Shown here in pieces: positions 20,114 to 57,672 of a stretch of DNA of 64,000 nucleotides. Made by a program: the position numbers and the translations under genes. Location: NCBI GenBank assembly GCA_026003175.1, contig BPGT01000001.1, positions 720,839 through 784,838 on the forward strand, in the 5' to 3' direction. Each line of letters opens with the position of its first letter. Within the stretch, counting starts at the first letter, position 1. The notes below the pieces were generated by a model. The model worked only from the letters and a program-made list of their open reading frames with translations. It was not told the DNA's origin and did no database searches. The stretch comes from Armatimonadota bacterium. Its GTDB lineage: Bacteria; Armatimonadota; HRBIN16.

Positions 20114-22777
20114 CTATGCGGCTTGCTGGAGTATCTGTCGTTCAATATAGTTCCGCACGCGCTGCCACTCGGCAAAGAGCGATTGCGCGGTTTCCAGAGC
20201 CTCTTCTGTGTGTTGCTCTTTGCCTGCTCGTTCCAGTGCCAAGGCAATCTCGGCAAAGGTTTGTGCGCCCACCGCCCGCGCACTGCCTTTGATGGTATGC
20301 GCCGCGCTTGCCAGAGCCTTGCTGTCGCCTGACGCAAGAGCCTGGCGCACCTGCTCTATTAAACTGGGAATAGTGCTCAAGAACTCCTGTAAAAGTTCCC
20401 GTTCGAATTCGGTGTCACCGCCTGTCATGTCCGCGAGGAAGTCGCGGTCAATCGGCGAACGCTCCATTGACTCCATGGGGGAGTCCAAATCTTGCCACTT
20501 CTCAAGCATCTCTTGCAGAACCTCCATTTTGACTGGTTTACTCAAGTAGTCATCCATGCCCGACGCGAGGCATTGTTGCACATCTTCCTTCATTGCGCTG
20601 GCGGTCATCGCGATAATCACCTGATGCTCACCCGTGCTGCGTTCACGCTCGCGGATGAGCCGCGTGGCTTCGAGACCATCCATGCGCGGCATGTGTACAT
20701 CCATCAGCACCACATCGTACCGTTGTTGGGCGGTTTTCTCCACCGCTTCCTCGCCATCCGACGCCACGTCCACCTCATAGCCGAGCTTCTCCAGCAGGCG
20801 CAGGGCGACTTTCCGGTTTACCTCGTTGTCTTCTACTAGTAACACGCGCCTTGCCGCGCGGGCAATGCCCTGGTCAGCGTCACCTTGCAATCGGGGCAGG
20901 GCGTCGCTGGCTATCCCCTGAGATTGTTCCATATTCGGGACGAAAATCGGTAATGTCACCCAGAAAGTACTGCCCTCGCCCTCCTCGCTATGTGCGCCGA
21001 TGCTTCCACCCATCAATGTGGCCAGCTGGCGGTTAATTGCCAAACCAAGACCGCTGCCCCCATATCGGCGTGTGGAGGAACTGTCGGCCTGGGTAAAGCT
21101 CTCAAAGATAATCTCTTGCTTTTCGGCAGGGATGCCGATGCCTGTGTCGCTAACCGCCAGCCGCAGCCACACAGTGCAATAGCTTTCCGGTATGCCGAGC
21201 CGCTGACGCAGGGACGCTACGCTTGCCTCCTCACCCGTTTCGGCAAGGCTGACCCGGATGGTGATGCCGCCGCTTTCGGTAAACTTGACCGCGTTGCCCA
21301 CGAAGTTGGAGAGTATCTGGCGCAGGCGCAGTTCGTCGCCTACCACACGAGAAGGAGCCTCATCGGCTATTTCCACTTGCAGGGACAGCCCTTTTTCTTT
21401 TGCGCGGGCGTCGAACAGCCGAGCGACCTGGTATACCAGCTGATGTAAGTCTAACGGGGCGTAGTGCAGCTCCATTTTGCCGGCTTCTATGCGAGAGATG
21501 TCCAGGATGGCTCCTAACAGCGATAGCAGGCTCTCCGCGCTGTTCTTCAACGTAGCGACGTAATCCCTCTGCTCCTCGTTCAACGGAGTATCCATGAGCA
21601 GTTGCGCCATGCCGAGGATACCGTTCATCGGGGTACGAATCTCGTGGCTCATGTTGGCGAGGAACTCCGATTTGGCGCGATTAGCCGCCTGTGCTTGCTC
21701 TAGCGCCTCCGCCAGCTGCCGCTCGAAACGCTTGCGTTCGGTGATGTCCTGTTTGATGGCGACGAAGTGGGTAATGACACCGTTTTCATCCCATACTGGC
21801 GCGATGGTCATCTCTTCATGGTAGAAGCTGCCGTCCTTACGTCGGTTGACTACCTCTCCTTTCCAGACCTGTCCACTCAAGATAGTTCCCCACATTTGTT
21901 CATAGAACGTACGATCATGCCTGCCCGATTTCAGGATGCGTGGATTCTTTCCAAGTACCTCTTTGCAGGCGTAGCCTGTGAGGGTGGTGAAGGCTGGATT
22001 TACCCATTGGATCGTTCCGTTGCGGTCAGTAATCGCGATGGCGTTCCCTGCCATCTCCAGCGCCCGCGCGTGCAGGCGTAACTGCTGGCGAGCTTGCTCA
22101 GCTCGTCGGGATAACGCGTACACTGCTGCACCTACCAGTATGCTGGCAACCAGTATCAGTGCGTAGGTAATGTGTGCATGGTGTCGGATTGCAGCCAGCC
22201 GCTCGCGATATTCGTTCACATGCAGGTCTACGCCCACGATACCTACCAGCTTGCCCGCGGAGTCGCGGATGGGAGCGTAACCACTGATGACCGTTCCCCA
22301 CTGGTCGGTATAAAACTGTTTTTCCGCAAGGGCTCTCCCCTCGCGCAGAGCACGAAGCATTTCAGGAGTCGCCTCGTCATAAGGCTGTTTCAAGTAGGAA
22401 TAATCCGGTTTGCCGGTCTTCGGGTCATTATCGGGCGTGCCCAGCACAAAGTACACCTTGCCATCGCGCAGGACGCAGGTGTAAATGTCGTAGATGTCTC
22501 TGGATGCTTCCATGAGGCGGTAGAAAGGAGCAATCGCCTTCTGGTATTCCGGTGTCAGGGCGTCCTCTGGCTTCCATCGCAAATGTCTGTCCCCATCCAC
22601 GTGTAGTGCGGCGACGCGAGCGAGGCGCACCAGATTCTGACGCACCTCGTGGTGCAAGGCGTTCTCCGCCTTCTTTTGCAACGACACCCCGCTGGTAAGC
22701 GATACCACAACTATCGATACTACCACCGCCGTCGCGGTAACAGACGGCTTAGTAAACCAGCTGGTGACCGATTTCAT
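20114..22777 (-). CDS. Hybrid sensor histidine kinase (PAS, HisKA, HATPase, REC, Hpt)
   Basis: An 887-residue inner-membrane phosphorelay protein. TM1 is about residues 12-30 and TM2 about 203-222, enclosing a Cache-like sensor of about 170 residues. A PAS domain follows (about 235-350). HisKA has SHEIRTP with the phosphorylated His near 378, and HATPase shows SDTGIGIP and [13 protein letters not shown]. The receiver domain has Asp near 693 ([11 protein letters not shown]). A C-terminal Hpt domain carries His near 827 ([13 protein letters not shown]). No output response regulator lies alongside, so phosphate must pass to a regulator encoded elsewhere. The ligand is unknown. It is a single gene with AGGAGAAA before the ATG. 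Confidence 0.94.
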
Positions 22778-23041
22778 AGAGACCCGTTTTTTCTCCTATC
22801 TCTGGAATTATCGGCAAGGGGGTAGTATTTCACGAGGGCGTGTCCATGATATCGCTCCGACCATGTGGCACGTGCGCCAGTTACCGGCAGAAAAGGACGG
22901 GGCGTGCGGATGAAGCACTAGAGGCAAGACCAGTCATAGAAGAAGGCAATCTCTCCTTTTCCTAATTGGGAAGGAGCATCAAAGGAGCATGACACGTGCG
23001 CAACGAACTTTTACCTCATCAAGGGCGACGAGGTGGTGTGT
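22778..23041. other. Divergent intergenic region between kinase and CocE-like hydrolase
   Basis: About 264 bases separating two divergent genes, so it should contain both promoters. I see GATAAT-like and AT-rich stretches near 22807-22830 but no convincing paired -35/-10. A purine-rich GGGAAGGAG near 22970 and AAAGGAG near 22980 resemble ribosome binding sites not followed by a usable reading frame. No gene is supported. Confidence 0.4.
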
Positions 23042-44547: not shown

Positions 44548-47500
44548 TTATTCCTCCTTCGCAACCTTTCCTCCCGCGCGCTCTATCTTCTGCAGGCGTT
44601 CAATCGTTCTGGCTATCTTGCGCCTATGCTCCAACAGCGGGCGCGGGTCGGTGGTGAAATGCGTGAGGTCCTGTGAGATATGCTCCGGCACCTGCAACAG
44701 CTTTTCGGCTTCGGCGATCAGCGAGGCAGGCGCTTTACCGCGCACGCGCTCTACCTGCTTCTGCAGGATGACAAAATACTCGTAGTCCTCCACGCCGTCG
44801 CGCAGGTTCTCCCAACGTAGGGACGGGGAAGGCGGCTCGAGGACAGGAGGATACGGGACGTTGGGGTCGCGCCGTGGGGGATACAGGAACCGTCCATCGC
44901 CATTGCCCCAGAACTGTTTAGTGCCCTGCGGTACGCCGTATCCAGTGACGTAGCTCATCGGGTCTTCCCACGGGTTCTGCAGCCTGTCGGGGAAGGCGGT
45001 CGGGCTAGTCCAGTAGGTGGTTTCCCATATCAGGATGCCCTGAATGCCGTACTGCCACGTTTGCCATCCCCACAGGCGCATCTCCACGCCCGGATGCTCG
45101 ATGAACAGTCCGATGTACGGTGCGCGCGGACCTGTGCAGATGTACCACCACACCTCCTCGCCTGCTTTCTTGCGCTCCTCTGCCTTCTCACGCGTCCATT
45201 CGGGAGTAAGCCCGCACCACAGGTCCACATGTCCGTACAGAGGCGGTTCCGGCTGCTCGGTGAGCATTCGGCGGATGCCTGGCGCGTGACGTTTGATGCG
45301 CTGCATCCCTTCTATGACAAAATCGTAATCGCGAGGTTCCGGCTCGTCGAACCAGTAGACGTAAGCCTTCTCCAGCCATCCTTTTTCGCGCAGGTGAGAT
45401 TCTATCTGGTGTACATAGTCGCCCCACAATCGCTCGTACTCGGGCGTGCCCGCCTTAAAGCCTCCAAACTCGCCTGGGTATCGCTCGTAGAATGTGCCTC
45501 CCCCCATCCCCTCCAGGGGCAGCACGAAGGCGTTAAAGCCTATCCTGTCCAGATAAACGCTCGCTGCCTGGTCAAACTCGCTGAAGTCCACGATCACCTT
45601 CTTGTCTGCCCCTTCGCCCTCGAAACGCACACGAATGGGGGCATGCGCGTAGAATGAGTACGGCGAGATGCGATGTTCGGCAAAGGAGCGCATATACATG
45701 TCCCAGACCAATTTCTCCTGGTCCGGTCGTTCCAGATGGTGATACCGCTTGATGTTCCATGGGCTGATGCCAAAACCACTGCGCAGGGTGGGCGATTTGG
45801 GTAAAGCAAAATCGAACACCGTAACCTGTAGCGGGACAGTGATTGTGCCCCTGCTAGTGTGTAAGGTGATAGTGCCATTGTAATCGCCTGCTACCGCGCT
45901 CTCCGGCACATGAACCAGTATCCACAGCGCCTGGTTGCGCCCCTGCGGCAGGGCAATCGGTGGTTTGAGCGGGGGCAGCGGATCGGGATATTCGCCGGGC
46001 ATACCAAGCGAGTCGCTGGGGTGTTCTACCGGCACCGTTGCCACCTCGTGTACCTGAATCTGGGAGGCGTTAATGCGCGTGCGTGCGCCCACTAGGTCGC
46101 TGACGGAAAAGCCTTCCAGCACCGTATTTGCCTCTCTCGCCCGAAGCACCAGCTGGGCAGGCTCGAACTCACCTCGCGCGGCTTCGATATGGATAGCAGG
46201 GCTGGGTTTGCCGGAAGGAGCAGGACGGTCGCGTCCTACCTTCCATGCGCCCTCGCACCACCATATCTCGCCAAAGCCAATCGGTGCGGCAAGAGGATAG
46301 CCGTAGTGCGATTCGTCCAGGACCATCGTCGTCACCTCGGTTTGTGCAGCGTAAACCATCGCTCGCCCGGAGGTCGCGCGCAGGGCTATTGTATGTTTGC
46401 CTGCCGATAACCCCGGCAACCTCAACGTAGTCTCGCCGCTGGCACGGGGTTTAAGGACAACCTTCCCAAGCGATTGCCAGCGACTGTCCTCCCCCAGGGC
46501 GACCTCTATCTGGCGAGCAGAGGGCTGTCGATTCATCCAGCGCACGCGCCATACATTGCCATCAGCGTACCATTGCGCCTGCAAACCGGGTGACGTAGTA
46601 CGCTCTTCTATCACCAGCGTCTGCCCAATGCGGGGCGTGCCACGATAGCCCACCTTTGCTCGGAGGCGGTAGGTATCTACCTGAGCATACGCGTTGTCCC
46701 CCTCTACCGATAGCCGGACGTACAGCTGTCTTGTCGGGAAGAGGCTCTCGGGCAGCTGCGCCTCTACCTGTCCTGCCCTGGAGGCAGTGATAGCCCGTTG
46801 CCATTGTTGCCCATCCGTGCTCACACCAACCACCAGCGCGCCGCCAGTATGATAGTTGACATTTATCAGCAGGCTCCCCTGATGCATAAGGTAGGGCAGA
46901 GTATGTCGGTAGATCACCTCATCACCCGGGCTGAACACCCAGCGGTTGGTGTTGAAGTACGCCTTCTGCCGGAAGAGCGTGCGATGGATAGTTGTGCCGT
47001 ACCAACCAAGCATGTGTGTATCGGTGTACTCTCCGTCTTGCAGGCTTTCTCCTTCGCCGAGGGTTACACCACCCCAGCGGCGGTGTACCACCTGCGCGGG
47101 ATACAGCTCCGCATCGTCGAAGTGCACAACGCCTTTTAGATGCCACTGTCCCAGACGCGCAAATGGCGCAGGCGCTTCGGGGGCGCGAAAGGCGAACACA
47201 AAACGCTGCCACTGCGCACTGGCGCCGAAATCGTGGTTGACCGTGTTCAGCCCGCTGATGATGGTTCCGCCGCCCTCGGCGCGAGCACGGAAACAAAACA
47301 CGTACGCTGCGCCCGATTGCAAGTTGAGCACGTGGGTGCGCCAGTATGCGCTGTCTTCGCCTGTACCCCGCACCGCCAGCACCTGCTTGCCGTTTGCCTG
47401 AGTGCGAAACACACTCTGCTGTACGCTCCAGTCGGCTGGCACGCCGGATGCTTCGCCCGCCTGCCACTGCGAAAGCGGCGGCAACAGATTCTGCGCTGCT

Positions 47501-47550
47501 GCATGAAGAGGCAGTAGCGCCCACACGATAAGAAGAGAGAGAATACGCAT
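44548..47550 (-). CDS. Secreted 1000-residue DUF4091-domain, glycoside-hydrolase-like protein
   Basis: A protein of exactly 1000 residues with a signal peptide (MRILSLLIVWALLPLHAAAQ). The first 430 residues are beta-sandwich carbohydrate-binding or discoidin-like modules. A further beta-rich region of about 430-600 (with SDSLGMPGEYPDPLPP) precedes a TIM-barrel-like part of about 600-880 with the motif YWFDEPEPRDYDFVIEG, where D/E are the likely catalytic acids. The DUF4091 end includes WETTYWTSPTAF and the LRDGVEDYEYFVILQK region. Related proteins include GH123-type hexosaminidases. It is probably exported to degrade complex carbohydrates. Confidence 0.85.
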   Translation of the reverse strand: MRILSLLIVWALLPLHAAAQNLLPPLSQWQAGEASGVPADWSVQQSVFRTQANGKQVLAVRGTGEDSAYWRTHVLNLQSGAAYVFCFRARAEGGGTIISGLNTVNHDFGASAQWQRFVFAFRAPEAPAPFARLGQWHLKGVVHFDDAELYPAQVVHRRWGGVTLGEGESLQDGEYTDTHMLGWYGTTIHRTLFRQKAYFNTNRWVFSPGDEVIYRHTLPYLMHQGSLLINVNYHTGGALVVGVSTDGQQWQRAITASRAGQVEAQLPESLFPTRQLYVRLSVEGDNAYAQVDTYRLRAKVGYRGTPRIGQTLVIEERTTSPGLQAQWYADGNVWRVRWMNRQPSARQIEVALGEDSRWQSLGKVVLKPRASGETTLRLPGLSAGKHTIALRATSGRAMVYAAQTEVTTMVLDESHYGYPLAAPIGFGEIWWCEGAWKVGRDRPAPSGKPSPAIHIEAARGEFEPAQLVLRAREANTVLEGFSVSDLVGARTRINASQIQVHEVATVPVEHPSDSLGMPGEYPDPLPPLKPPIALPQGRNQALWILVHVPESAVAGDYNGTITLHTSRGTITVPLQVTVFDFALPKSPTLRSGFGISPWNIKRYHHLERPDQEKLVWDMYMRSFAEHRISPYSFYAHAPIRVRFEGEGADKKVIVDFSEFDQAASVYLDRIGFNAFVLPLEGMGGGTFYERYPGEFGGFKAGTPEYERLWGDYVHQIESHLREKGWLEKAYVYWFDEPEPRDYDFVIEGMQRIKRHAPGIRRMLTEQPEPPLYGHVDLWCGLTPEWTREKAEERKKAGEEVWWYICTGPRAPYIGLFIEHPGVEMRLWGWQTWQYGIQGILIWETTYWTSPTAFPDRLQNPWEDPMSYVTGYGVPQGTKQFWGNGDGRFLYPPRRDPNVPYPPVLEPPSPSLRWENLRDGVEDYEYFVILQKQVERVRGKAPASLIAEAEKLLQVPEHISQDLTHFTTDPRPLLEHRRKIARTIERLQKIERAGGKVAKEE

Positions 47551-48980: not shown

Positions 48981-48996
48981 CGACAAGACCTCTCCG

Positions 48997-49024
48997 GGTG
49001 GCAGGCACAGATGCGCCTGCCACC
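48997..49024 (+). terminator. Hairpin terminator after the second prepilin unit
   Basis: A perfect 10-bp stem, GGTGGCAGGC (48997-49006) with GCCTGCCACC (49015-49024), around an 8-base loop, followed by a partly T-rich stretch (TCGCTTCGTTTG). It separates the prepilin/TM pair from the next operon. Confidence 0.65.
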
Positions 49025-49117
49025 TCGCTTCGTTTGCCCTGTCTGCACTAAACGGCTCGGGTTGCCGATAATAGATTCCGAAACGCCTTTCAAGTGCATG
49101 TAGAGAGGGGGATAGCC

Positions 49118-49321
49118 ATGAACCCCGATGACATCGCTGTCCGACCGGTCATCACCGGCAACGCGGTGCGTGCTGTACATCGAGAGGCGCCCTCGCGTGA
49201 CTCCACAGAGGGACGACGACCCCATGTGCACGAGCCGGAGGAAACCGAGCAAGCCGAAGTCACGGAGGACAGCATCTCGGCAAACGCGGAAGAGACCCAT
49301 TTCATAGACCTGCGAGCATAG
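49118..49321 (+). CDS. Small acidic, disordered protein, unknown
   Basis: 67 residues from the ATG at 49118, which follows GAGAGGGGGA. The composition is polar and acidic, with runs such as EPEETEQAEVTEDS, and no hydrophobic core or signal peptide. The end, EETHFIDLRA, is a short possibly structured tail. I do not recognise a family. It is 10 bases upstream of the next gene and is likely the first member of the operon running to 52274. Confidence 0.55.
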   Translation: MNPDDIAVRPVITGNAVRAVHREAPSRDSTEGRRPHVHEPEETEQAEVTEDSISANAEETHFIDLRA

Positions 49322-49331
49322 AGGAGGCGGT

Positions 49332-49874
49332 GTGGGCGTTATCGGATATCTGACCGTCGCGGAGGTAGAACCTTCGTTGTTCCTCGGCGCGGCGATGACT
49401 ACCGACTCGTTCGGTCTACCCGTAGAGTTTCGTTACACCGAGCCGGTACGCGCGACGTCGTTACAGCGCATCCTGTACGGCAACGCGTTGCACCGTTATT
49501 TGTGTCGGGAGGTGATTGCCTCCGCCCTGTTGCAGGCGATGGAGAGCCGTCCAGAGGTGTGGGTGGTGCAGGATGAGCTATTGCTGGAGCCGCTGGAAGC
49601 AATGAAGGCTCCTGTAGTGATGCTATTTTCAACCGAGATGGCGCCGATGAGCGATTTGGGCGCGACGATGCCTGCGGGCGATGGAGAGATGCTGGTTCAG
49701 CTTTCCCTTGCTGGTGCGCCATTGCGCGTGCGGTTTGGTAACGAGGACGCTGGACTACAGCGTCAGGCGGTGCAGGCGCTGACCGAAGCGGCGCGTACCA
49801 TGGACGTGCTGGAGCCGCTGAGCCGCTTACAGCAGGCGGTGCGCGCGGTGCGGCAGGAGCAGGAAGCGGCTTGA
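49332..49874 (+). CDS. Conserved-looking cytoplasmic protein of unknown function
   Basis: 180 residues from a GTG with GAGGAGGCG a few bases before it. It begins GVIGYLTVAEVEPSLFLGAAM, continues with LPVEFRYTEPVRATSLQRILYG and has an alpha/beta pattern, with a helical C-terminus (LQRQAVQALTEAARTMDVLEPLSRLQQAVRAV). There is no signal peptide, TM or known motif. The stop overlaps the start of the next gene. The consistent codon use and strand coupling argue that it is real. I could not assign a family. Confidence 0.7.
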   Translation: MGVIGYLTVAEVEPSLFLGAAMTTDSFGLPVEFRYTEPVRATSLQRILYGNALHRYLCREVIASALLQAMESRPEVWVVQDELLLEPLEAMKAPVVMLFSTEMAPMSDLGATMPAGDGEMLVQLSLAGAPLRVRFGNEDAGLQRQAVQALTEAARTMDVLEPLSRLQQAVRAVRQEQEAA

Positions 49875-50680
49875 ATATGTCGTGGTGGGGATGTTTTTGG
49901 GTTCGGATACTGACGTGGTTTCTCGCTGTGGAACAACCATCGGTGCATGGAGGGAACCTGGCGGTTCCTTCTCCGGCGGTAGCGGTCGTTCCTGTACGAC
50001 GTGGGAATCTCTCCGTTTATCTACCACGCCCTCTTCACTGTCGGGTTGTGGGCGTTTCCGCCCGCGCGCAGCGCTGCGCGGTGCGTCACCTTTCTCCACC
50101 GAGGACGCAGGTGCGTATGGTGTGTGCTCCCTCCGCTATCGCGAGAGTGCAAGCCGTGCCTCTGGCGATTCGTATACGGTCGTGTAAGCTCGTACCGATG
50201 CGTGCAACCTTACCTGTGCCTCGTCGCGTATTATTATACAGGTATCAGCCCGCGATTCGTGCTCGCGTGCGCCTGTTGCCAAAGCAAGTGAGAACCGTCA
50301 GCGCGGGTTTGCAGTGGCGCTGTCGGACGCAGCAGGTAACCGTCGAGCGGTTTCGCTGTCGAAGTGTGTACTCCTCGCTGGCATGGCAATTGCCCATCGC
50401 CCGACGTGCATTGTGCTTCGAGCACCTGGCGGCGGAGCACCGTCGCCAGTGCCGGGATGCGTTACAGCGAGCCGCGAAAGGATACGCGCGCGTCCAGAGC
50501 GTATACTACCCTGTACCCGCGCACGCTGTTGCACGCCTTGAGATAGACGAGCGGGTCGGTGTGCTTTACGTGCATCCCCGCAAGGGACGTTCAGACGTTG
50601 TCCCTGCTTGTTTGTGGGTGGTGTCGGGGGTGCAGCTGGTAGACGGTCGCGCCGTACGTGCGGTGCTGAGGATGATCTGA
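49871..50680 (+). CDS. Arginine-, valine- and cysteine-rich protein of unknown function
   Basis: 269 residues from a TTG at 49871 that overlaps the preceding stop (an ATG at 49877 is the alternative). Composition is unusual: about 10 Cys, many Arg and Val, few acidic residues in the first 160 positions (for example CRVVGVSARAQRC). The C-terminal 70 residues are more ordinary (ARLEIDERVGVLYVHPRKGRSD). There are no known motifs. Both ends share overlapping stop/start signals with neighbours, and the frame stays open for 810 bases. Even so it could be a high-GC artefact, so confidence is moderate. Confidence 0.55.
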   Translation: MNMSWWGCFWVRILTWFLAVEQPSVHGGNLAVPSPAVAVVPVRRGNLSVYLPRPLHCRVVGVSARAQRCAVRHLSPPRTQVRMVCAPSAIARVQAVPLAIRIRSCKLVPMRATLPVPRRVLLYRYQPAIRARVRLLPKQVRTVSAGLQWRCRTQQVTVERFRCRSVYSSLAWQLPIARRALCFEHLAAEHRRQCRDALQRAAKGYARVQSVYYPVPAHAVARLEIDERVGVLYVHPRKGRSDVVPACLWVVSGVQLVDGRAVRAVLRMI

Positions 50681-51186
50681 TGGGGCTACTTTTTCTGCTG
50701 GCGCAGGCGGTTCTGCTTATTCTGGCGGGTGTGATGGCGCTGCGTGTGCGTGAGGAACTGCAGCTGCTGGTGCGGCAGGCCGCCTCGCAACAGCAGGGTG
50801 AGCAGATAAAGCGTCTGCACGAGGAACTGCAGCAGACCCTGCGTGAGGTGCGTACGACCTTAAGCGAGGGTATCGTGCAGCTGGAGGGACGCATCACGCG
50901 GGCAGAACAGGTGCTACGCATGTTGGAGGCGCACCTGCCGGACGAATCGGCGGGGCCGCCTTCGGATTCGCAAGACGCCGCACGGCGTGTTCCTGTAGAG
51001 CGCATCCTCGCGCTGGCGGATACCGGTTGTGACGTGAAGGAGATTGCGCGATTGACAGGTGTAGCAGAGGGCGAGGTGCTGCTGGTATTGCAGCTGCGCG
51101 CGCAACGGGTAGACCAATCAGGTAACACTTTTGAAGAGCCATCTTCTGGCAATTTTGCCCGGAGGAACGAAGGGACGGACGAATGA
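50680..51186 (+). CDS. Membrane-anchored coiled-coil protein with C-terminal HTH-like segment (SwrB/YlxL-like plan)
   Basis: 168 residues from the ATG at 50680, sharing a base with the previous stop (TGATG). An N-terminal TM helix (about 3-22, LLFLLAQAVLLILAGVMALRV) is followed by a coiled coil (about 25-90). The end, ILALADTGCDVKEIARLTGVAEGEVLLVLQL, looks like a short helix-turn-helix of the DUF6115/DUF2802 type. SwrB/YlxL of Bacillus has this same plan and helps assemble the flagellar export gate. The resemblance is one of architecture; a similar role is only inference. Confidence 0.7.
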   Translation: MGLLFLLAQAVLLILAGVMALRVREELQLLVRQAASQQQGEQIKRLHEELQQTLREVRTTLSEGIVQLEGRITRAEQVLRMLEAHLPDESAGPPSDSQDAARRVPVERILALADTGCDVKEIARLTGVAEGEVLLVLQLRAQRVDQSGNTFEEPSSGNFARRNEGTDE

Positions 51187-51203
51187 GAGGAGAACGAATC
51201 ACG

Positions 51204-52274
51204 ATGCGAAAATGGCTACCACTGTGGATAGCGATTCCGGTGGCGATGATGCTGGTTGCCACCAGCTGTGGCAGGAAGACCGTCGGCAGAGTGAATGACA
51301 AAGCGATCAGCCAGGCGGAATATTACAAAACGCTGGAGCGGATGGCAGTGCCCATAACGCAGGGCGAGAACCCCATGCGCGACCCTGCTACCGGTCGTCT
51401 GATGCGTGAACAGGCAGGGTATCTCGCGCTGCGGATGCTGGTAGACCGCCAGATTATCCTCGATATGGCAGAAAAAGAGAAAGTGATGCCCACTGAACAG
51501 GAGATTAACCAGGCGCTTGAGCGACAGAAGAAGCTGCCCGATTTCAATGAACGACTAAAAATGCTCGGCTACACGCAGGACGACCTGAAAGAGGATATCA
51601 AGGTGGAGCTGGCAGCCTTCAAGCTCATCACCAAGGGCATCACCGTCAGCGATGATGAGGTGAAGAGGGCGTATCAGCAAAACATCCAGCAGTTTACCAT
51701 TCCAGCACAGGTGCAGGTGGCGCTGATTCTGATGGATAACCGCAAAACGCTGGAGCAGGTGCAGTCTCAAATCAAAAAAGGCGTGGATTTCTCGGTGTTA
51801 GCCACGCAGTACAGACTGCCCGATATGCCTGTAAGCGCCAATGTCACCAGCGTATGGTTTTCGGAGAACAACGATATGTTCCGACGATTTCCCTACCTGT
51901 GGCAGACTCTGCAGAAGACGCCCGTGGGAGCTTTGACCCCACCGCAGCCCATCAAGTTACAGTCGGCACAGGGCAAAGTAGTGGACGGCTGGGTTATCTT
52001 CAAGGTGCTGGGCAAGAAAGACCGCCAGGTGCGTCCGCTGGACGAAGTAAAAGAGGACCTGCGTCGGCTGCTGATGCAGGCAAAGAGCAAGCGCAACCTG
52101 GTGCGCGAACTGATGCAGATGCGGGCACAGGCAAAAGTATCGTTTGAGATACCGCGTTTCAACCGCCGCTGGCAAGAAGAAATGAAACAGTTGCAGCAGC
52201 AGCTTCAGGAAACACAATCGCCGCCTTCCGTTCCCACGGTGCCAGCGCCGTCCACCGGGGGCTCGACGCCTTAA
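51204..52274 (+). CDS. SurA/PrsA-like periplasmic lipoprotein (peptidyl-prolyl isomerase family)
   Basis: 356 residues from the ATG at 51204, with AGAGGAGA 11 bases upstream; an ATG at 51183 that overlaps the previous stop is possible. The N-terminus ends with a lipobox-like VATSC (about Cys 22). Residues 27-145 match the SurA N-terminal chaperone fold (VGRVNDKAISQAEYYKTLERM, then LVDRQIILDMAEKEKVMPTEQEINQAL). About 150-290 is a parvulin-like domain with degenerate motifs. A Pro/Thr-rich tail ends the protein. It should assist folding of exported or outer-membrane proteins. It is the last gene of the operon, followed by a hairpin. Confidence 0.85.
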   Translation: MRKWLPLWIAIPVAMMLVATSCGRKTVGRVNDKAISQAEYYKTLERMAVPITQGENPMRDPATGRLMREQAGYLALRMLVDRQIILDMAEKEKVMPTEQEINQALERQKKLPDFNERLKMLGYTQDDLKEDIKVELAAFKLITKGITVSDDEVKRAYQQNIQQFTIPAQVQVALILMDNRKTLEQVQSQIKKGVDFSVLATQYRLPDMPVSANVTSVWFSENNDMFRRFPYLWQTLQKTPVGALTPPQPIKLQSAQGKVVDGWVIFKVLGKKDRQVRPLDEVKEDLRRLLMQAKSKRNLVRELMQMRAQAKVSFEIPRFNRRWQEEMKQLQQQLQETQSPPSVPTVPAPSTGGSTP

Positions 52275-55123: not shown

Positions 55124-55290
55124 TATCCGGAATATGACAAAATAAAGAATCTTCATCTACGAGCACTACCGCTTTGTGTCTGCAATGAACCCGCATCGAG
55201 CAGGAAACCGCCCGCTACAGGCTTAATTTGTTCTTACCTGCGCTTGTGCTGAACCGATTAATAATCGCTGACGGCGAGGTGTTTTACGTG

Positions 55291-57672
55291 ATGAACCTGT
55301 TTGCTACCGACTACGGCTATTTCGCCGAATCAGGCGACGAATATGTGATCGTCCGCCCCGATACACCCATGCCCTGGGTGAACGTTATTTCCAACGGGGA
55401 CTACGGCATGGTAATATCCCAAGTGGGCAGTGGTTACAGCTGGCGCACACACGCCAGCATGAACCGCCTTACCCGCTGGGAACAGGACCTTGTGCGCGAC
55501 CGCTGGGGCAAGTACCTCTACCTGCGCGACGTGGAAACCGGCGAGTTCTGGAACCCAACGTGGCATCCCTGCCCGAACAAACTCCAAACATATCGAGTGC
55601 GACACGGATGGGGTTATTCGGTCTTTGAGGGCGATTACAGACAAATCACCAGCGAACTTACCCTGTTTGTGCCTCTTGAAGAGCCTTGTGAGGTCTGGTT
55701 GTTACGTTTACATAACAAAGGAAACACTGTGCGCCGGCTACAAATATTTTCGTATCTGGAATGGTTGTTGGGAACTGCCCCCGACTGGCATCGTGAGTTC
55801 CGACGGCTGTTTATTGAAACACGATATGATCCTGAGCGTGGCGTGCTATTCGCCACCAGTGTGATGTGGGATATTCCCGGCAGGAGCAATACGCACTGGA
55901 ACAGTGACTGGGAGTATGTGGCGTTTCACAGCGCCTCGGTGATGCCTGCCGGTTTCGATGGGGACAAACGCGCGTTTCTTGGAAAATACGGTGACCTGGA
56001 CGCCCCACAGGTAGTTGTGGAAGGCAGGTCGCGTGGTACACAGGGACGCTGGGGTGATGGCGTCGGCAGTCTGCAGGTAGTTGTCGAAATTGCGCCGGGC
56101 GAGTCCACAGAAGTGGCTTTCGTGCTGGGCGCTGCGGATAACGAAGGACAGGCTCTGTCGCTGGTGGAGAAATATCGCCATTTGCCCACTGTGCATGATG
56201 TACTGACGCAGGTCAAGCGGTTCTGGAAAGAGACGGTAAGCGGTCTTGTTGTGCAGACGCCAGATGATGCCGTCAACGTGATGGCGAACGGCTGGCTGAC
56301 GTATCAGGCGATTTGCTGTAGGTTGTGGGCGCGTACCGCCTACTATCAAACAGGCGGCGCGTACGGCTACCGTGACCAGCTACAGGACAGTCTGGTGTGG
56401 CTATTGCTGGGGCAACCTCAGCGCACGCTGGAGCAGATTCGTCTGCACGCCGCACACCAGTATCAGGACGGCACGGTGTTGCACTGGTGGCACCCACTGG
56501 CTGAGCAGGGCTTGCCTTCCCACTATAGCGACGACCTGCTGTGGTTACCGTTTGTCACGCTGCACTACCTGCTGGAGACGGGCGATTTCAGCTGTTTGCA
56601 GGAGGAGATGCCCTTCTTCGACGGCAGCTCTGCACCTCTGCTGGAGCACTGTCTGCGGGCATTGAATAAGGCGCTGAGCCGACGCAGCGGGCGGGGTTTG
56701 CCGTTGATTCTGCAGGCGGACTGGAACGATGGCATGAACGCCGTGGGCATCGGCGGTAAGGGTGAAAGCGTGTGGATGGCGCACTTTTTGCACTATCTGC
56801 TGACGCGCTGGGCGGAGCTGCCCGTGCTGGATGAGCAGACCGCTACCCGCTTCCGCAGAGAGGCGCAATCCCTGCGCGAGGCAGTGAACACGCACGGCTG
56901 GGACGGCAAATGGTACTGGCGGGCGAGCACCGATTCGGGCAGACTGGTCGGTTCAGCGCAAAATACGCAGGGGTGTATCTTCCTCAACGCGCAAACATGG
57001 GCGGTTATCGCCGATACTGCACCTCCCGATCGTGCCGAGCAAGCTCTGCAGTCCGCACGCGAGCACCTGTACAAGCAGTACGGCGCGCTGTTGCTGGCTC
57101 CGGCGTACAGTGTTCCTGACCCAGAGATTGGCTACCTCACTCGCTACGCGCCGGGCACACGCGAGAACGGCGGCGTCTATTCGCACGCGGCGTGCTGGGC
57201 AGTGCTGGCAGAGCGCAAGCTGCATGGTGTGCAGGCTGCCTATCGGCTGTGGCGCAGCTTCTGCCCGCCGATACGGGGGATGGAACCGGAACGCTATGTT
57301 GCCGAACCCTACGTGATGCCCGGCAATGTGGATGGACCCGATTCGCCGTACGAGGGCAAAGGTGGCTGGACGTGGTACACTGGCTCGGCGGCGTGGTATC
57401 TGCGTGCGCTGGTGGAGGGTGTGCTGGGCATCGAAGCCACCCTGAACGGCTTGCGCGTGCAGGCGCAGTTGCCGGAGGAGTGGGAATCGTTCCGTGTGCA
57501 ACGGCGTTTTCGGGGAAGTACTTACGATATCATTGTGCGTCGGGCACAGCAAGGCGAAGAAGCAGGATGTACAGTGGATGGACAGCGCTGGCAGGGGGAT
57601 ACGCTGCCGGTGTTTGAAGCGGGTACAACGCACCGGGTGGAAGTGGTGCTGAGTACGCAGACAGCCCGCTAA
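55291..57672 (+). CDS. GH94-family glycoside phosphorylase-like protein
   Basis: 793 residues from the ATG at 55291, with GGCGAGGT 10 bases upstream; a GTG at 55288 also fits. There is no signal peptide, so it is cytoplasmic. The first 270 residues are the N-terminal beta-sandwich (GYFAESGDEYVI, LTRWEQDLVRDRWGKYLYLRD). An (alpha/alpha)6 barrel follows with YRDQLQDSLVWLLL and the catalytic-Asp motif QADWNDGMNAVGIGGKGESVW (D480). It resembles cellobiose/chitobiose phosphorylases and the GH94 part of cyclic glucan synthases. It should cleave a beta-linked disaccharide with phosphate; the exact sugar is unknown. Confidence 0.87.
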   Translation: MNLFATDYGYFAESGDEYVIVRPDTPMPWVNVISNGDYGMVISQVGSGYSWRTHASMNRLTRWEQDLVRDRWGKYLYLRDVETGEFWNPTWHPCPNKLQTYRVRHGWGYSVFEGDYRQITSELTLFVPLEEPCEVWLLRLHNKGNTVRRLQIFSYLEWLLGTAPDWHREFRRLFIETRYDPERGVLFATSVMWDIPGRSNTHWNSDWEYVAFHSASVMPAGFDGDKRAFLGKYGDLDAPQVVVEGRSRGTQGRWGDGVGSLQVVVEIAPGESTEVAFVLGAADNEGQALSLVEKYRHLPTVHDVLTQVKRFWKETVSGLVVQTPDDAVNVMANGWLTYQAICCRLWARTAYYQTGGAYGYRDQLQDSLVWLLLGQPQRTLEQIRLHAAHQYQDGTVLHWWHPLAEQGLPSHYSDDLLWLPFVTLHYLLETGDFSCLQEEMPFFDGSSAPLLEHCLRALNKALSRRSGRGLPLILQADWNDGMNAVGIGGKGESVWMAHFLHYLLTRWAELPVLDEQTATRFRREAQSLREAVNTHGWDGKWYWRASTDSGRLVGSAQNTQGCIFLNAQTWAVIADTAPPDRAEQALQSAREHLYKQYGALLLAPAYSVPDPEIGYLTRYAPGTRENGGVYSHAACWAVLAERKLHGVQAAYRLWRSFCPPIRGMEPERYVAEPYVMPGNVDGPDSPYEGKGGWTWYTGSAAWYLRALVEGVLGIEATLNGLRVQAQLPEEWESFRVQRRFRGSTYDIIVRRAQQGEEAGCTVDGQRWQGDTLPVFEAGTTHRVEVVLSTQTAR

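What the first reader, a model, noticed from the sequence alone, without database searches (positions are those of the whole stretch)
49118..52274. Five-gene operon of mostly unrecognised proteins ending in a SurA-like lipoprotein
The set comprises a small acidic protein, a 180-residue unknown, an Arg/Cys-rich unknown, a TM/coiled-coil/HTH-like protein and a SurA/PrsA-like lipoprotein. The last four genes overlap each other, and the first lies 10 bases ahead. The fourth has the plan of SwrB/YlxL, which helps assemble the flagellar export gate. The order lies directly after a prepilin unit and a terminator. It may be a compact system for export or surface-structure assembly, with no close described counterpart that I know of.
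Basis: partly seen in the sequence, partly recalled or inferred. Interest (0 to 1): 0.65.

Follow-up and report, generated by a model that had tools for sequence, protein, structure and literature searches.

The report
Detached tail of a flagellar operon
These five genes are a conserved accessory unit for building bacterial flagella that has broken away from the main flagellar operon; it joins a membrane protein of the FipA/SwrB type with two undescribed proteins, one of which has the fold of a DNA/RNA-cutting enzyme but lacks its full active site.

Summary
The five genes are real, translated and conserved. The genome is a flagellated armatimonadote.

Genes 2-3 (180-aa protein and Arg-rich partner) follow the flagellar sigma factor in Vampirovibrionia. 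In one armatimonadote family, small protein + 180-aa protein follow flhA-flhF-flhG-glgA-sigma28. In another, genes 4+5 follow flhA-flhF-flhG-sigma28. The whole five-gene set recurs in a third family and genes 2-5 in a fourth. In this genus the ancestral operon is split into three pieces. A sigma-28-type -10 box (CCGATAAT, identical to the flagellin promoter's) precedes the unit in 8 of 9 congeners.

Gene 4 matches both DUF6115 (also rings in Bacillus subtilis, presumably SwrB) and DUF2802 (FipA, the FlhF partner), with FipA's three invariant residues at identical spacing. Gene 5 is a SurA/PrsA-type lipoprotein. The 180-aa protein is confidently predicted to have an Endonuclease V/PIWI-like RNase H fold without the first catalytic Asp.

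A sister class of the 180-aa protein sits next to SNF2 helicases and is not tied to flagella.

Best reading: a flagellar accessory module, gene 4 acting as a FipA/SwrB-like membrane factor; the role of genes 1-3 is unknown beyond a likely acidic/basic complex. The prepilin neighbourhood is incidental.

The parts
48996..49025 (+). Intrinsic-terminator-like hairpin that closes the upstream prepilin unit
   Evidence: RNA fold -25.8 kcal/mol for 48985-49045, z -2.75; similar GGCAGGC...GCCTGCC hairpins precede most congeneric units
49065..49072 (+). CCGATAAT, the -10 element of a sigma-28-type promoter; -35 element weak or absent
   Evidence: Conserved in 8 of 9 congeners in an otherwise unalignable leader; same octamer behind TAAA at about 16 bases in flagellin promoters of this genus; 13 genome hits of TAAA-N14..17-CCGATAA against 4 for the reversed control, several before flagellar genes
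49118..49321 (+). Gene 1: small acidic protein (67 aa) with conserved N-terminus and C-terminal H(L/F)IDLR(A/V) tail; positional counterparts in f25 and f42 end in HLIDIRV / LHIDVRA
49332..49874 (+). Gene 2: 180-aa protein, new family, predicted RNase H-like (Endonuclease V/PIWI-type) fold; hallmark G-x-P-x-E-F-R...Q-x-x-L-Y-G
   Evidence: Alignment A2; AlphaFold pLDDT 93.9; Foldseek PDB best E about 5e-6 to 1e-5, EndoV TMq 0.5-0.6; no Pfam, NCBIfam or PADLOC family
49877..50680 (+). Gene 3: Arg-rich partner (267 aa; alternative TTG start 49871): N-terminal helix, long predicted-disordered linker, conserved C-terminal alpha/beta domain (about residues 170-267)
   Evidence: pN/pS 0.45 (0.29 in the C-terminal part); C-terminal homology across f1/f22/f42/Vampirovibrionia by hhalign; model confident only at the C-terminus; no PDB fold match
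50680..51186 (+). Gene 4: FipA/SwrB-type protein (168 aa): N-terminal TM, coiled coil, DUF6115/DUF2802 C-terminal domain with G116, E132, L135
   Evidence: 11/13 family members match DUF6115 and 11/13 match DUF2802 at E <= 0.01; alignment A4; spacing equals FipA G110/E126/L129 (PMC11620751)
51183..52274 (+). Gene 5: SurA/PrsA-like peptidyl-prolyl isomerase with lipoprotein-type signal
   Evidence: Rotamase_2 46.7 bits (cut-off 27), SurA_N_3 36.4 (27.2), SurA_N_2 38.1 (28.5); orthologues in f11, f22, f42 in the same place

Best explanation
The unit is an accessory operon for flagellum biogenesis: the tail of an ancestral flhA-flhF-flhG-glgA-X-fliA(sigma28)-[small]-[180-aa]-[third]-[FipA/SwrB-like]-[SurA-like lipoprotein] operon, which in this genus has come apart into three pieces. 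It is probably switched on with the flagellar genes by sigma-28. Gene 4 is anchored in the inner membrane and, like FipA or SwrB, engages the flagellar machinery from the cytoplasmic side (FlhF recruitment and/or activation of the export gate). The acidic 180-aa RNase H-fold protein most likely forms a complex with its basic, partly disordered partner and works with FlhF/FlhG, sigma28 or the basal body rather than as a nuclease. The lipoprotein isomerase would fold exported envelope components. Shown here: translation, conservation, flagellar gene order, FipA residues, fold prediction, sigma-28-type -10 box. Inferred: the complex, the membrane target and the function of every protein.
For: Gene order: sigma28 - 180-aa - third in Vampirovibrionia L019-L023 and in L087 (sigma identity checked for L019 and L087); flhA-flhF-flhG-glgA-X-sigma28-small-180 in f25, L089; flhA...sigma28-DUF6115-SurA lipoprotein in f11, L095; small-180-third-gene4-SurA in f42, L072; 180-third-gene4-SurA in f22. 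In G000 flhG-like-glgA-X-sigma28 sit on contig 6 and flhA-flhF 800 kb away. FlhA occurs in 16/16 armatimonadote carriers of this class (159/221 others, Fisher p = 0.006) and in 8/8 carriers of the Cyanobacteriota phylum. Flagellins and FlgM present. CCGATAAT conserved upstream. Gene 4: DUF6115 and DUF2802 matches and FipA residue spacing. Acidic 180-aa / basic third in all Armatimonadota tested.
Against: Most flagellated Armatimonadota (about 150 of 175) lack the 180-aa protein, so it is not needed for a flagellum as such. In this genus the unit is not next to flagellar structural genes, and the -35 of its promoter is not sigma-28-like; no such motif was found upstream in f22, f25 or f42. In G275/G293 the 180-third pair sits beside an acyl-CoA dehydrogenase gene. 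The sister class of the 180-aa protein is tied to SNF2 helicases, not flagella. Co-occurrence counts are not corrected for phylogeny.
Confidence: 0.65

Rival explanations
1. Gene 4 is specifically a FipA-type FlhF recruiter (flagellum positioning), and genes 1-3 are additional FlhF/FlhG partners that set flagellar place and number.
For: Same plan as FipA (TM, coiled region, DUF2802) and same genomic place in f11, after flhA-flhF-flhG-fliA; G116, E132, L135 match FipA G110, E126, L129, of which G110 and L129 are needed for FlhF binding (PMC11620751). flhF and an flhG-like gene are present in the genome.
Against: G and E are invariant but the L is replaced by M or T in two relatives, and several f22 members have a one-residue insertion; the window protein itself reaches E <= 0.01 only with DUF6115 and scores weakly with DUF2802 (0.048).
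Confidence: 0.4
2. Gene 4 is a SwrB-type activator of the flagellar export gate (FliP), and the unit licenses flagellar type III secretion; the lipoprotein isomerase folds exported parts.
For: The DUF6115 model matches 11/13 relatives and rings in Bacillus subtilis; SwrB is a single-pass protein that activates the export apparatus through FliP (PMC4526659; PMC12153297).
Against: The SwrB paper states that it is conserved only in Bacillus; the B. subtilis hit was not traced to SwrB itself here; no FliP contact could be tested.
Confidence: 0.25
3. The 180-third pair is a nucleic-acid-binding module related to SNF2-helicase defence or repair modules and rides along in flagellar operons, acting on flagellar gene expression or not on flagella at all.
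For: EndoV/PIWI-like fold; class II relatives next to SNF2 helicases with or without an Mrr nuclease; strongly basic partner.
Against: No acidic residue where the first catalytic Asp of RNase H-fold enzymes lies in beta-1; class I is found only in flagellated genomes; the third gene has no helicase or known nucleic-acid-binding domain.
Confidence: 0.2
4. An envelope or pilus system tied to the prepilin unit upstream, unrelated to flagella.
For: The prepilin gene lies about 320 bp upstream in the window and is kept there in several congeners.
Against: A terminator separates them; no such prepilin gene takes that place in f25, f42 or Vampirovibrionia, where sigma28 or the small gene does.
Confidence: 0.05

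Closest known systems
FipA (DUF2802), gammaproteobacterial FlhF-interacting protein
   Same: N-terminal TM, coiled region, C-terminal DUF2802-like domain; G/E/L spacing; place behind flhA-flhF-flhG-fliA in a relative
   Different: Weak sequence match for the window protein itself (better for its relatives); accompanied by three undescribed proteins and a lipoprotein isomerase; FlhF binding untested
SwrB/YlxL of Bacillus subtilis (DUF6115 rings in that genome)
   Same: Single-pass membrane protein with cytoplasmic coiled coil and HTH-like end; operon place after the flagellar sigma factor (for Bacillus recalled, not tested)
   Different: Different phylum; SwrB described as Bacillus-only; no FliP evidence here
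Endonuclease V / PIWI domain (RNase H-like fold)
   Same: Predicted fold over nearly the whole length (Foldseek probability 1.0, TMq up to 0.63)
   Different: 12-15% identity, no profile hit, first catalytic Asp absent, genomic setting flagellar
SurA/PrsA peptidyl-prolyl isomerases
   Same: SurA-like N-domain and PPIC-type domain above Pfam cut-offs, lipoprotein-type signal
   Different: Fixed place behind a FipA/SwrB-like gene in the flagellar operon tail
Zorya ZorD / Dpd DpdE SNF2 helicases (only for the sister class of gene 2)
   Same: Class II relatives of gene 2 are followed by a ZorD/DpdE-like SNF2 helicase, in some cases with an Mrr nuclease
   Different: No helicase in the window's unit; no other Zorya or Dpd genes were noted next to class II

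Membership tests
FipA (DUF2802) | Single N-terminal TM, coiled region, one cytoplasmic DUF2802 | tested here: inconclusive
   11 of 13 family members match PF10975 at E <= 0.01, best 4.8e-6; window protein 0.048 and below the curated cut-off; hydrophobic N-terminal stretch and coiled-coil-like stretch judged from the sequence only
FipA (DUF2802) | Invariant G110, E126, L129 at +0, +16, +19 | tested here: met
   Window G116, E132, L135; G and E invariant in all 13, L in most (PMC11620751)
FipA (DUF2802) | Encoded directly behind the flhA-flhF-flhG-fliA operon | tested here: inconclusive
   Met in f11 (L095); in the window's own genus the operon is broken and the unit stands alone
FipA (DUF2802) | Binds FlhF | not testable with these tools
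   Needs two-hybrid or pull-down
SwrB | Sequence family DUF6115 | tested here: inconclusive
   11/13 members match, best 5e-8; seven congeners reach the curated cut-off, the window protein (24.9 bits against 27) does not; the model rings in B. subtilis
SwrB | Activates the export gate through FliP | not testable with these tools
   Genetic and secretion assays needed (PMC4526659)
Endonuclease V | RNase H-like fold | tested here: met
   (prediction)
Endonuclease V | Catalytic Asp in beta-1 with Glu and Asp partners | tested here: not met
   No conserved acid in beta-1 of 25 sequences (IGYL...); an acid after beta-4 is frequent but not invariant. Judged from sequence and predicted strands, not from a superposition
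Endonuclease V | Sequence profile match | tested here: not met
   No Pfam hit at E <= 1; PDB profile search found no EndoV
SurA/PrsA-type PPIase | SurA-like N-domain plus PPIC domain | tested here: met
   orthologues
Flagellar regulon (sigma-28) | TAAA-N15-GCCGATAA promoter | tested here: inconclusive
   -10 box conserved in 8/9 congeners; -35 at the right spacing absent
FlgM (anti-sigma-28) substitute | Genome lacks FlgM where the unit occurs | tested here: not met
   FlgM found in G000, the other f1 genomes listed, most f22, f42 and f25
Known anti-phage defence system | Match of window genes to PADLOC models | tested here: not met
   None for genes 2, 3 and 5; gene 4 only a weak ZorB hit, E = 0.003; gene 1 not scanned

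The most novel reading that the evidence does not exclude
An Endonuclease V/PIWI-fold pseudo-nuclease, shared with SNF2-helicase modules that look like DNA defence or repair systems, was recruited together with a basic disordered partner into flagellar operons of Armatimonadota and Vampirovibrionia, where it acts with a FipA/SwrB-type membrane protein to place or license flagella.
Probability: 0.3. Interest if true: 0.8.

Novelty: new variant of a known kind. Interest (0 to 1): 0.57.

Why it matters
It adds conserved, undescribed components to the flagellar repertoire of two little-studied lineages. It extends FipA/SwrB-type proteins, described so far from gammaproteobacteria and Bacillus, to Armatimonadota, and suggests through bridging sequences that FipA and SwrB may belong to one superfamily, which can be tested directly. 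It also defines a protein family with an Endonuclease V-like fold that occurs in two settings, flagellar operons and SNF2-helicase modules.

Tried and rejected
FlgM replacement: rejected, FlgM is present. Prepilin/pilus link: disfavoured (terminator, no conservation of that neighbourhood outside the genus where tested). Third ORF as a spurious frame: rejected. Known fold for the third protein: none (mean pLDDT 53, only the C-terminus usable). Homology of the third gene to the N-terminal regions of the SNF2 partners: no hhalign support. Profile search of the 180-aa family against PDB sequences: only a repeat-driven chance hit, Crov588. PADLOC match of the unit: none of weight. Sigma-28 motif upstream of the unit or of the sigma gene in other families: not convincing. 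The first co-occurrence test over all 180-aa carriers (24/27, p = 0.04) mixed in the SNF2-linked class and was redone by class. An early idea that the G031 locus supports a flagellar link was dropped: its partner is a SNF2 helicase.
Full report
Where it is. The window is G000:C1:720839-784838 of an armatimonadote genome (4.1 Mb, 7 contigs); nearest named records include Bacterium HR16 and a 'Chthonomonadia bacterium'. The genome has FlhA and an FlhF-like gene (C1:1.57 Mb, L035), a FliA/WhiG-type sigma-28 (contig 6), three genes with flagellin N-domains and FlgM, so it is flagellated by gene content.

The five reading frames, their sizes and the tight spacing are as described. The doubtful third frame is coding: it is open over 269-270 codons in eight congeneric genomes, pN/pS is 0.45 in this frame against 1.15 and 1.38 in the other forward frames, and constraint is strongest in the C-terminal third (0.29). 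Its likely start is ATG 49877, not TTG 49871. The small first gene is conserved in the genus at both ends.

Neighbourhoods. The 180-aa protein was searched in 237 armatimonadote genomes (27 carriers) and 292 genomes of the Cyanobacteriota phylum (4 carriers), besides five named loci from Vampirovibrio and relatives. In the Vampirovibrionia and in L087 the order is sigma-28, 180-aa, third gene (two of the sigma factors checked); in L019 a histidine kinase and a response regulator follow. In family f25 (L089) the order is flhA-flhF-flhG-glgA-X-sigma28-small-180, where the contig ends; the small protein ends in HLIDIRV like the window's HFIDLRA (glgA there was read by eye). In f11 (L095) it is flhA ... 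sigma28 - DUF6115 protein - SurA-like lipoprotein. In f42 (L072) the complete five-gene unit is present, followed by mazG. In f22 genes 2-5 are together, again followed by mazG. In G000 itself an flhG-like gene, glgA, a short ORF and sigma-28 lie on contig 6 (L109), and flhA-flhF lie 800 kb from the unit. The parsimonious reading is one ancestral operon that broke into three in this genus. In congener G008 a flagellin gene lies on the same contig about 12 kb from the unit, with a CheB-like gene between them (sequence read by eye).

Regulation. One set of flagellin promoters of the genus reads CTAAAG...CCGATAAT. In G000, TAAA-N14..17-CCGATAA occurs 13 times against 4 for the reversed control and precedes a flagellin, a FlgF/G-type rod protein, the flhG-glgA-sigma28 operon, a protoglobin chemoreceptor and an HD-domain response regulator. 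Upstream of the five-gene unit the octamer CCGATAAT (49065-49072) is the only strongly conserved block of the leader, in 8 of 9 congeners. The -35 is not canonical and the motif was not seen upstream in other families, so sigma-28 control is likely but not shown.

Gene 4. Eleven of thirteen relatives match DUF6115 and eleven match DUF2802. DUF2802 is FipA, an FlhF partner encoded directly downstream of the flhA-flhF-flhG-fliA-che operon, with a TM, a coiled region and the C-terminal DUF (PMC11620751). FipA's three fully conserved residues (G110, E126, L129) have exact counterparts in spacing: G116, E132, L135; the first two are invariant in our alignment. The DUF6115 model also rings in Bacillus subtilis, presumably SwrB, the FliP activator described as Bacillus-specific (PMC4526659); that hit itself was not inspected. 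The armatimonadote proteins therefore bridge the two families. The main text of the FipA paper does not mention SwrB, although a library-wide count found the word three times elsewhere in that file, so the link may have been remarked on already.

Gene 2. AlphaFold gives pLDDT 93.9 and pTM 0.89; the best PDB neighbours are Endonuclease V and PIWI domains (61 matches with E <= 0.001). No acidic residue is conserved in strand 1, where the first catalytic Asp should be, so catalysis is unlikely. The protein is acidic in every relative (pI 4.3-5.9); the third protein is basic in all Armatimonadota tested (9.5-12) and mostly basic elsewhere, which suggests a complex.

Two classes. A tree splits the 180-aa family into a class followed by the third gene and a class followed by a SNF2 helicase (support 93/95, just under the starred level). 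The second class has a ZorD/DpdE-like SNF2 helicase next to it in all nine loci scanned, two of those with an Mrr nuclease domain. FlhA is present in 16/16 armatimonadote genomes and 8/8 Cyanobacteriota-phylum genomes with the first class, but in 8/11 with the second, which equals the background. This internal control ties the window's class, and not the whole family, to flagella. Counts are not corrected for relatedness, and the FlhA background in the Cyanobacteriota phylum was not measured.

What remains open. The function of genes 1-3, the direct target of gene 4, and whether the lipoprotein isomerase acts on flagellar parts are inferences. Most flagellated Armatimonadota lack the 180-aa protein, so the module is accessory. 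Two genomes (G275, G293) keep the 180-third pair next to an acyl-CoA dehydrogenase gene; both carry FlhA.

Noticed in passing
L026, L027, L073-L079, L090 (G031, G042, G096, G116, G236, G076, G239, G120, G084, G240): Sister class of the 180-aa protein directly followed by a ZorD/DpdE-like SNF2 helicase, with an Mrr nuclease domain in L075 and L077: a candidate two-gene defence or DNA-processing module; the 180-aa partner has no PADLOC match.
   Followed up: partly
window 22807-22814 (- strand): CCGATAAT about 30 bp before a PAS/HisKA/receiver/Hpt hybrid kinase (20114-22777); possible sigma-28 target. The octamer occurs 5 times in the window against 0.95 expected.
   Followed up: partly
L109 7187-10804 (G000:C6) and L089: A glycogen synthase gene (glgA) sits between flhG and the sigma-28 gene in two families; an odd, conserved member of a flagellar operon.
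   Followed up: partly
L071 (G070), gene 4 homologue: The C-terminal HTH-like (FipA/SwrB-type) motif appears twice in one protein.
   Followed up: no
L086, L088 (G293, G275): 180-third pair beside an acyl-CoA dehydrogenase gene in the Cyanobacteriota phylum; these genomes carry many FlhA-like matches (12 and 10).
   Followed up: partly
L036 (G031:C107): Second, divergent flagellar-type export cluster (FliH, FlhA-like and others) with its own sigma-28, besides the main FlhA on another contig.
   Followed up: no
window 44548-47550, 55228-57672: GH123-type and GH94-type carbohydrate-enzyme genes flank the region; the latter lies beyond a cluster of three tRNAs and a second prepilin-type gene.
   Followed up: no
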